Assembly: GCA_903813345.2 (NCBI GenBank)
Contig: CAIIXF020000008.1
Span: 1,621,341 to 1,685,340, forward strand
Origin: Owenia fusiformis
Taxonomy: Eukaryota > Annelida > Polychaeta > Sabellida > Oweniidae
Direction of reading: 5' to 3'
DNA length: 64,000 bases
In this document: positions 3,001 through 6,000 of the stretch, piece by piece
Numbering within the stretch: position 1 is the stretch's first letter
How the letters are laid out: the number at the start of each line of letters is the position of its first letter
Notes under the pieces: model-generated
Databases searched by the model: none
The model's input: only the letters and a program-made list of their open reading frames with translations
What the model was told of the DNA's origin: nothing
Position numbers and translations under genes: made by a program

Positions 3001-6000
3001 CACCTGCGGAATATGTCATACTCACTTGCGGAATATGGCATATACCGCAGGTGAATATCACATATACCGCAGGTGAAAGCGAAAAACAGAAAGTGTTGGT
3101 TTGATTGGTTGCGAGAATCGACTCTAAATGTAAAACTATACGCTGGATTACCAATATATTTAGTGCGTCGAGTACTAATATATGAATCCTGGATTGATTG
3201 AGTAAGTTTATTACGCGAGATTGATGACTGATACTTCTGCTAAGTTAATATATTCGATACACAGTACTGTTGATTCAATAATCATTATAATAATCTATAA
3301 CGTTTTACTTGTTCGTTCAATCGATGCAATTGACAATTGCGTACTTCCGCATTACGTTCTCATTGGTTAGTGTATATGCCATATACCGCAGGTGGATCTG
3401 TCATACACCCCAAGTGAATATGCCATATTCGTTGCGGAATATGACATATTTTTGTATCGTGTTTACCGCATAACAAAGGGGGTCATATCAAACATTGACT
3501 AGTTTAATACATTAACTTTTTGGTTTGCACCTATAAACTTTACATCAGAGAGATAAGTGACTGAACTATGCTCAGTAAAGTTTTGGTGCATTTTAGAGGA
3601 AAAATAAAGGTTTTGTGTTCAATTAACAAATGTTCCAATTTTTTTGGACCACCCTGTAGAGACTAGTACTCATTAAAGAATGAACACAAGGAGCACATGT
3701 GTCTCAAACTCACAACCTCGTGGTTTATAATTAAACTCAATCGATATTCAATACTCATAATACATCAGCATTCCTTGTAGATATTAGATATGGTACTCAT
3801 AAAAGAATGAACATACGGAGCATACGTGTCTCAAACTCGCAACCTCGTGGTTTAGGGTACCCATTCACCTAAGACCTCTTGGCCAACTCAGCAACCAAAA
3901 AAGTTTGTTTCCTTCGCTGATCTGACTAGATAGAGGCTGCGGATTCAGTCTTAAATGATGCAGGATAGATGAAAACTGTTGTGCGTAACATGCTAAAATC
4001 AGTTTTTGGCAAATATCTTGAGAACCATTGACTTTTTTAAATACATATGTATTATTGACCCCCTATAATGTGGCCATTCCGGACATTTTGAGTGGTCAAA
4101 CAACCTTCTATGTCCAACGGTTCCGGAGATGCAAAAATGGGGGGGTGAGTATTCGCGTAAAAAAGGGCGTGGCCATTTGACCTATTTCGCCTTCTGTGGC
4201 AAATATGTTACCAAGCCAAAATTGATCAATGACCTTCACATAGATGATTTCTGAAGAGAAAATCTCTGGACATAGAAGTGCATACTCAACCAGCATGAGC
4301 TACTAGAGTAAATATATTAATTCACAATATATAATATATGTCAAAATAAACATAAAAAATAATTAAAACCAAATATAATGATAAAAATCATCATTTCAAA
4401 AAGTGGTCCGAGTTGTCTTGGGTCCGAGTTGTCCAGGGTCTGAGTTGTCCTGGGTCCGAGTTGTCCGGAAACCATTGCCAGGACAAGTGTAAATTGCAAG
4501 CAAGCAGGGCCTTTCAGACACAACCAAACTACAGGAACACCATGCCCAGAGCAATGGAGTATTATGACATAACAATAACAAAGCCCACTGTTCTATTGTG
4601 TATGACATCATAATAACACAATGCAAGGATGAGATTTCATCATGTATCGCACCCTTGCATTCTAAAGCATGTTCACGTGTTTAAATGTACTATCCTCATT
4701 ATATAGCAAACATACTGAAACTTCATACAGTAAATGCAACATAATGAGCATTTTGCACAATACAGTACTACAGGCATTTGGGCTGCAAAAACTCCAAGTG
4801 CAATCTCGACCCGGGTGAACTTACGAAATATTATCAGTTTGGTAGTTGATTATAGAAGAAATGAAGGTATCTTTGACAATGACACCCCTAATTGCCTTCC
4901 AGTCACTGGCTGTCTCACCAAGGAGGAAACAAACAGACTCCACAGCCAGCTTGATAATAGCTGGCGGGTTGGCCATCGACTTCACCTCAACGATGGACTG
5001 CTTTTTAATCCCCTTAACCGCTAATCACAACAAAGAGAGATAGAAGTTAGACAGACAATAGATACAGAGAGCATACCCCATCTACATGACATGACATTTC
5101 TGTAGAATAGGGCATGTTCTTGTTAGCTTTATAACAAAGCCATATACACTTACGATATGTTTTCAGTGTCGAAGTTCACAATGGTCGAGATGAAATTATC
5201 TCGCATTATGATCCCACGCATTCCTTTCCAGTCTACATTTCCTTCACCCAGGAGTGTGCAGACTGACTCAAGGGCGGTACGTACAGCCTCTGGGGGACGA
5301 GCAAGTGATCTCACTTCCACCAAATGTTGTTTCTTAATACTTTTCACAGCTATAGGATACAGAATGGTTAGAAGGTGGACAAAGACAAACATGGAACATT
5401 TGATAACACTATTCATCTATCTGTAGGTAAATCTTTTTAGCAGACAAAGTTAATCTAATAGATTTTATGTTTTAAGAAAGTATTTTTGACTTTCATATTG
5501 ATATTTAAGTCAGAGAGCGCAATTTAGTTTGTATATAAATTGTTTAGAGTGTATTATCTCCAATAATTAGATGTAGAAACTAGGCAGATTTGAGGAATAT
5601 GTTCTCCAGTACCTTGTTTGGCATCAATGACAGCTGGTTCTACTTTAGCGAGGTCCTCCATGACAAACTTCTTTTTCTCATTAATGACTATGGTCTGTTT
5701 GTTGAGGGCTTCTTGGATCTCCTGGGAGGCGACCTTCTTCCTTTCAGCTTCCTGTTGGTCTTTCACCTACAATGAAGAATTATGGGAAATTAAGGGTTTG
5801 TTCATCAATTACTGGGAAATTATGAAGAATTATGGGAAATTAAGGGTTTGTTCATCAATTACTGGGAAATTATGAAGGATCATGGGAAACAATGAAGAAT
5901 TATGGGAAATTAAGGGTTTGTTCATCAATTAGTGGGAAATTATGAAGAATCGTGGGAAACAATGAAAAATTATGGGAAATTAAGGGTTTGTTCATCAATT

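What the first reader, a model, noticed from the sequence alone, without database searches (positions are those of the whole stretch)
4825..5349. Tandem, probably mutually exclusive exons swap the microtubule-binding face of cytoplasmic dynein
Seen: exons 56a (5154-5349) and 56b (4825-5020) are both exactly 196 bp, have identical phases (1 in, 2 out), intact AG/GTAAGT sites and about 39/66 identical residues. Because 196 is not a multiple of three, including both or neither breaks the frame, so each transcript must use one. Known: this segment covers the end of stalk CC1, the proline hinge and MTBD helices H1-H3; H1 and H3 touch tubulin. Inference: the animal makes two dynein-1 motors from one gene with different track affinity or stalk signalling. 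Divergent positions cluster at the hinge (RPPEAVRT against NPPAIIKL), the H1-H2 loop (GEGNVD against GETASD) and the end of H3 (NFDTEN against NYQTDN). I do not know whether this has been described in this lineage.
Basis: partly seen in the sequence, partly recalled or inferred. Interest (0 to 1): 0.92.

Follow-up and report, generated by a model that had tools for sequence, protein, structure and literature searches.

The report
Two-version exon in a dynein gene
In this invertebrate genome the gene for cytoplasmic dynein, the cell's main retrograde motor, carries two alternative copies of the exon that encodes part of its microtubule-gripping tip, so the animal can probably build two versions of the motor from one gene; a pair of this sort was reported in 2011 in the dynein gene of a parasitic flatworm, and whether it is the same exon could not be checked.

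Summary
Confirmed: exon a (5349-5154, minus strand) and exon b (5020-4825) are tandem homologous 196-bp exons of a cytoplasmic dynein-1 heavy-chain gene, with the same phases and intact AG/GTAAGT sites. Either one alone keeps the frame into the next exon; both, or neither, gives an early stop. The pair is old: pS is 0.88 but pN only 0.29, and both copies resemble mammalian dynein (46/64 and 37/64), so both look constrained. Mutually exclusive splicing is the best reading, but no transcript was seen. Two details change. The differing residues do not cluster overall (P = 0.81), and the charged contact residues I could look up are kept in both copies, so a plain affinity difference is not indicated. 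Copy a departs from mammals chiefly at the proline hinge and start of H1, the helix that moves when the motor switches affinity; copy b keeps that hinge and differs elsewhere, mostly conservatively. Closest prior report: an equal-length mutually exclusive exon pair in the dynein-1 gene of Schistosoma mansoni (PMC3228551); its text does not place it in the protein. Side finding: minisatellites built from exon edges and splice sites in the same gene.

The parts
5613..5766 (-). upstream constitutive exon ('exon 55'), stalk CC1, 154 bp, ends in phase 1
   Evidence: aligned to mammalian dynein-1 stalk
5350..5612 (-). intron before copy a, 263 nt
5154..5349 (-). alternative exon copy a, 196 bp: end of CC1, hinge LARPPE, H1-H3 of the microtubule-binding domain
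5021..5153 (-). 133-nt intron between the copies; CTAAC branch-point-like sites 107 and 31 nt from the donor
4825..5020 (-). alternative exon copy b, 196 bp: same segment with hinge MANPPA
90..4824 (-). intron after copy b, 4735 nt
1..89 (-). downstream constitutive exon ('exon 57'), 118 bp in all, start of the H4-H6 half of the domain; its last 29 bases lie beyond the window (read in L001)

Best explanation
The pair is a functional mutually exclusive exon cluster in the only dynein-1 heavy-chain gene found in the assembly. Each mature mRNA takes copy a or copy b, giving two motors that share the other exons but differ in 27 of 64 residues of the end of CC1, the proline hinge and H1-H3. Shown here: anatomy, frame dependence, age and constraint. 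Inferred: that splicing picks one per transcript, that double inclusion or skipping is removed by nonsense-mediated decay, and that the swap tunes how stalk registry moves H1 (the affinity switch, hence stepping, run length or landing) rather than deleting tubulin contacts.
For: Equal length, phase and canonical sites. Only a alone or b alone keeps the frame. Purifying selection on both: pS 0.88 against pN 0.29; a 46/64 and b 37/64 identical to mouse; with 90% of bases redrawn at random (no indels, splice sites not counted) the frame stayed open in 66 of 5000 simulations. Donors are GTAAGT in both copies, while of 16 exon-end strings picked by eye elsewhere in the gene 13 could be placed and 2 of those 13 had GTAAGT (17 rows, 4 being array copies; one site misplaced by the script). 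Single gene: exons 57-58 match once, plus two weak places of 25% identity; the pair occurs once, other matches (2 of 4; 7 of 9) being weak. Hinge/H1: 5 of the 6 sites where only b keeps the mammalian residue lie in residues 15-24, where 7 of the 27 differing sites lie (P = 0.0014, region chosen after looking). CC1 and H1 move together on binding (PMC6629372, section 3 part 2 and passages).
Against: No RNA evidence of either exon. No clustering of differences. A steric block is not evident: the likely branch point is 107 nt from the donor of copy a. Intron-pairing tests were weak and disagreed between two set-ups. AlphaFold models of the exon alone were poor (mean pLDDT 70.0 and 62.8), so no structural difference could be read; the model of copy b shows H1 but not H2/H3 as helices. 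The looked-up contact residues do not differ, so a functional difference is not shown by sequence. Single copy rests on an assembly with gaps or withheld stretches, where a missing match does not prove absence.
Confidence: 0.8

Rival explanations
1. Only one copy is in general use; the other is an old exon kept for a narrow role (one tissue or stage) or for poison-exon control, in which joint inclusion and decay lowers dynein levels.
For: Joint inclusion gives a stop at the third codon touching b; copy b is further from mammals (37/64) than copy a (46/64).
Against: Both copies are constrained at the protein level, and where b alone departs from mouse it does so mostly conservatively (11 of 15 with positive BLOSUM62 score), which a pure poison exon would not need.
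Confidence: 0.15
2. Assembly artefact: a collapsed or mis-joined duplicate of the gene.
For: The gene contains several tandem arrays, which are error-prone in assemblies.
Against: The copies agree in only 113 of 196 bases with third positions at 18 of 65; neighbouring exons 57-58 were found once; no N in the window.
Confidence: 0.02
3. One copy is a decaying pseudo-exon.
For: None found.
Against: Open frame, intact splice sites and no indel at synonymous saturation.
Confidence: 0.03

Closest known systems
Mutually exclusive exon of Schistosoma mansoni cytoplasmic dynein heavy chain SmDHC1 (Pillmann et al. 2011, PMC3228551)
   Same: Same gene class; one extra exon of identical length, strong homology, split codons at both ends (section 9 read whole).
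   Different: [quoted passage not shown] the protein segment is not named and figures are not held, so identity with this exon is untested.
Mutually exclusive motor-domain exons of arthropod muscle myosin heavy chain
   Same: Tandem exons swap an equivalent piece of a motor to tune its mechanics (PMC3228551, passages and section 9).
   Different: Actin motor with several clusters per gene; here a microtubule motor and one cluster in the part of the gene scanned.
Mammalian DYNC1H1
   Same: Same gene; the segment aligns without gaps.
   Different: Described as apparently a single isoform from 78 exons in mouse and human (PMC3824068, passage).
A-to-I recoding of squid microtubule motors (Rangan and Reck-Peterson 2023; paper not held, seen only through the commentary PMC10577124, passages)
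   Same: Post-transcriptional diversification of transport motors in a mollusc.
   Different: Editing of single codons, tested mainly on kinesin; not exon choice.

Membership tests
cytoplasmic dynein-1 heavy chain | best match to dynein-1 rather than dynein-2 or axonemal chains across stalk and microtubule-binding domain | tested here: met
   229-residue spliced product with copy a: 319 bits to the best mammalian dynein-1 chain, 191 to the next cytoplasmic chain group (27pt/3vkh), 106 to dynein-2, 88 to the best axonemal chain (best 60 of 87 shown)
mutually exclusive exon cluster | tandem homologous exons of equal length and phase | tested here: met
   196 bp each, phases 1 in and 2 out
mutually exclusive exon cluster | frame breaks if both or neither is used | tested here: met
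mutually exclusive exon cluster | exactly one exon per transcript in RNA | not testable with these tools
   no RNA reads
mutually exclusive exon cluster | splicing mechanism that blocks joint use (steric, competing RNA pairing) | tested here: inconclusive
   likely branch point not too close; pairing signals that depend on method
same pair as Schistosoma SmDHC1 | same protein segment duplicated | not testable with these tools
   text of PMC3228551 gives no position; no flatworm sequence held

The most novel reading that the evidence does not exclude
The two versions of the dynein-1 microtubule-binding segment are an ancient trait, at least as old as the split of this animal's lineage from flatworms, so that a large part of the animal kingdom runs two hard-wired dynein-1 motors differing in the hinge/H1 affinity switch from a single gene.
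Probability: 0.4. Interest if true: 0.8.

Novelty: new member of a known kind. Interest (0 to 1): 0.55.

Why it matters
Dynein-1 is usually treated as one motor diversified by adaptors and smaller subunits; in mouse and human its heavy chain appears to be a single isoform (PMC3824068, passage). If both exons are used, evolution has kept two naturally tuned variants of the domain that grips and releases the microtubule. That gives a matched pair for testing which hinge, H1 and CC1 residues set the affinity switch, and asks in which cells each motor runs.

Tried and rejected
Relatives of copy a in viral contigs and genome contigs, in case of stray animal DNA: 25 and 303 stretches matched a pattern, none encoded a relative. 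Pfam gave no family for the two 64-residue exons at E 0.001. AlphaFold on the exon pair: low confidence; Foldseek of copy a's model put dynein first but at E = 0.022, with 0 of 5 matches at E 0.001. RNA pairing between introns: with simple shuffles, intron a-b with the head of intron b-57 stood out (1 of 100) and intron 55-a with intron a-b did not (81 of 100); with dinucleotide shuffles the former held for whole stretches (0 of 60) but not for local 50-nt windows (10 of 40), while the latter stood out in local windows (0 of 40); the other pairs tested gave 45 to 84 of 100 and 20 to 37 of 40. No conclusion. Species: no COX1 match; a 5.8S rRNA place was found but I had nothing to compare it with; a Hox query found a cluster with a Lox5-type KLTGP tail, so a lophotrochozoan is likely (gene labels and motif recalled). 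Literature on splicing: eight searches; two more were on RNA editing and on contact residues. Opened for splicing, passages only: PMC3583065, PMC2674883 (says arthropod heavy chains had not been analysed), PMC3162530, PMC10886578, PMC3824068, PMC6103457; none of these passages describes alternative heavy-chain exons. The other listed papers were seen as listings only. Kollmar 2016 and Hatje 2013 (identifiers recalled) and Rangan 2023 are not held.

Limits and dropped rows: one search compared only open stretches of 30 residues or more on the minus strand; one search listed only minus-strand matches within 6 kb and left out four repeat blocks; three of 16 strings were not placed and one exon end was placed wrongly by the script (true site GAG|GTACGT); exon ends there, and dynein exons beyond the pair and its neighbours, were recognised by eye.

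Full report
What is there. The gene on the minus strand is a cytoplasmic dynein-1 heavy chain: the spliced product of the exons around the finding (with copy a) matches mammalian dynein-1 at up to 319 bits, the next group of cytoplasmic chains at 191, dynein-2 at 106 and the best axonemal chain at 88 (best 60 of 87 matches shown). Copy a (5349-5154) and copy b (5020-4825) correspond to human residues 3296-3359 and 3296-3358. Both are 196 bp, end at GTAAGT donors, start after AG, and share 113 of 196 nucleotides and 38 of 65 residues. In the 498-Mb assembly G000 the two copies were found once each; the other 2 of 4 and 7 of 9 matches are weak and lie elsewhere. The downstream exons 57-58 were found once, with two further weak places of 25% identity. 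So the pair is an exon duplication inside one gene, as far as an assembly with possible gaps can show.

Frame. Joining exons in a script, a alone or b alone reads openly from exon 55 into exon 58. Using both stops at the third codon touching b, using neither stops after seven codons, and keeping the 133-nt intron stops within its first four bases. That no transcript with both or neither makes full dynein follows directly; that such transcripts are removed by nonsense-mediated decay is inference.

More than chance, and old. In an all-against-all comparison of 520 open stretches (30 residues or more) of the minus strand the pair scores E = 1.3e-28. Of the 87 pairs listed there, 62 have both members touching tandem arrays, 21 lie in one repeat block at 53.0-54.5 kb, 3 are other short matches and 1 is this pair. 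A second scan with stretches of 25 residues or more, limited to minus-strand matches within 6 kb and with four repeat blocks left out, found no second whole-exon pair but did find part of one dynein exon repeated in an array (see the side findings). Third codon positions agree in 18 of 65, first and second in 45 and 51 of 66; pS is 0.88, beyond the Jukes-Cantor limit, and pN 0.29. With 90% of bases redrawn at random the frame stayed open in 66 of 5000 simulations. Copy a shares 46 of 64 residues with mouse, copy b 37, and a and b share 37 with each other. Neighbouring parts of the product for comparison: exon 55 35 of 51, the rest of the binding domain 40 of 52, the following stalk 38 of 60. 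So both copies have been constrained for a long time and the split is old; I cannot date it without other species.

What differs. Of 27 differing residues, a keeps the mouse residue at 15, b at 6, neither at 6. Differences are spread, not clustered (P = 0.81). But the six sites where a alone departs are 15, 17, 20, 23, 24 and 43: five in the proline hinge and first turns of H1 (P = 0.0014 with the region chosen after seeing the data). Copy b's own departures are mostly conservative (11 of 15 with positive BLOSUM62 score, against 3 of 6 for a). In the cryo-EM work of Lacey et al. (PMC6629372; outline and abstract, passages, section 3 part 2) binding involves chiefly the joint movement of CC1 and H1. 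Residues discussed there and in PMC6125590 and PMC4987762 (passages) that fall in this exon, placed by mouse numbering (two less than human; offset recalled, and consistent with the residue letters): K3298, K3299 and R3337, named as facing tubulin, are the same in both copies; R3342 is R in a and K in b; the acidic residues E3320, E3328 and D3332 are the same in both; E3343 is D in both and E3356 is N in both. PMC6125590 also names K3336, which is a lysine only under human numbering; so read, it is K in both (my reading). The acidic rows come from a table of which I saw a part. Net charge of the segment is +1 in a and +2 in b. This is why I favour tuning of the hinge/H1 switch over a plain change of grip; it is inference.

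How one exon is chosen. The intron between the copies is 133 nt with a CTAAC site 26 nt from its end and 107 nt from the donor, and a second CTAAC 31 nt from the donor, so a steric block is not evident. Complementarity tests between introns gave signals that changed with the method and I draw no mechanism from them.

Who it is. The assembly has a Hox cluster on its contig C1 with a Lox5-type gene carrying KLTGP after the homeodomain and posterior genes of Post2 type (motif and labels recalled), so it is very probably a lophotrochozoan. No species was identified.

Prior art. Eight full-text searches on splicing of dynein in an open-access library led to one report, among the papers I opened, of mutually exclusive exons in a dynein heavy chain: S. 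mansoni SmDHC1 in Pillmann et al. 2011 (PMC3228551; passages, section 9 whole). The description (one extra exon, identical length, strong homology, split codons at both ends) fits the present pair, and flatworms are usually placed with or near the lophotrochozoans (recalled), so the pairs may be the same; the text does not give the position. [quoted passage not shown] I saw no report that names the microtubule-binding segment; many listed papers were seen as listings only, and subscription papers and protein databases are not covered.

Verdict. A real, constrained, frame-enforced alternative exon pair in the microtubule-binding tip of dynein-1, with its use in RNA still to be shown. New member of a known kind (mutually exclusive exons in a motor gene, once reported in this gene class), with good interest for dynein mechanics.

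Noticed in passing
window 7990-9763 (minus-strand gene): Minisatellite of 91 bp x 19.5, 97% alike, made of an intron end, its 3' splice site and the first bases of the next dynein exon. The junction TGTAG|GTGACGAGTAC occurs 19 times, the real one (8028) included: a row of 18 decoy acceptors in front of one real exon.
   Followed up: partly
window 16911-17123 (minus-strand gene): 30 bp x 7.1 array made of an exon end plus its donor (six GGTAAG in 16901-17140). The array stays open in the exon's reading frame and the next exon begins at the AAA1 P-loop (PAGTGKT), so use of a later donor would add multiples of 10 residues just before the P-loop (use not tested).
   Followed up: partly
window 18685-19106 (minus-strand gene): 59 bp x 7.2 array made of an exon end and its donor; GAAGAG|GTACG occurs 3 times exactly, 5 times with A or G at one base. 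Third exon-edge minisatellite in one gene, suggesting a local habit of duplicating exon edges.
   Followed up: partly
window 5772-6285: Minisatellite in the intron before exon 55 that ends within a few bases of its 3' splice site (exon starts at 5766).
   Followed up: no
L014 1134-1395 and 1485-1755 (G000 contig C1, near 17.97 Mb): Two posterior-Hox (Post2-like, label recalled) homeobox exons in tandem 351 bp apart, both preceded by AG, both starting EPRQRKKRKPY and ending in a stop: another possible alternative (terminal) exon pair.
   Followed up: partly
window 25254-26387, plus strand: Uninterrupted 377-residue open frame that looks by eye like a sulfotransferase (recalled, no search made), on the strand opposite to dynein-like open stretches seen by eye on both sides of it.
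   Followed up: no
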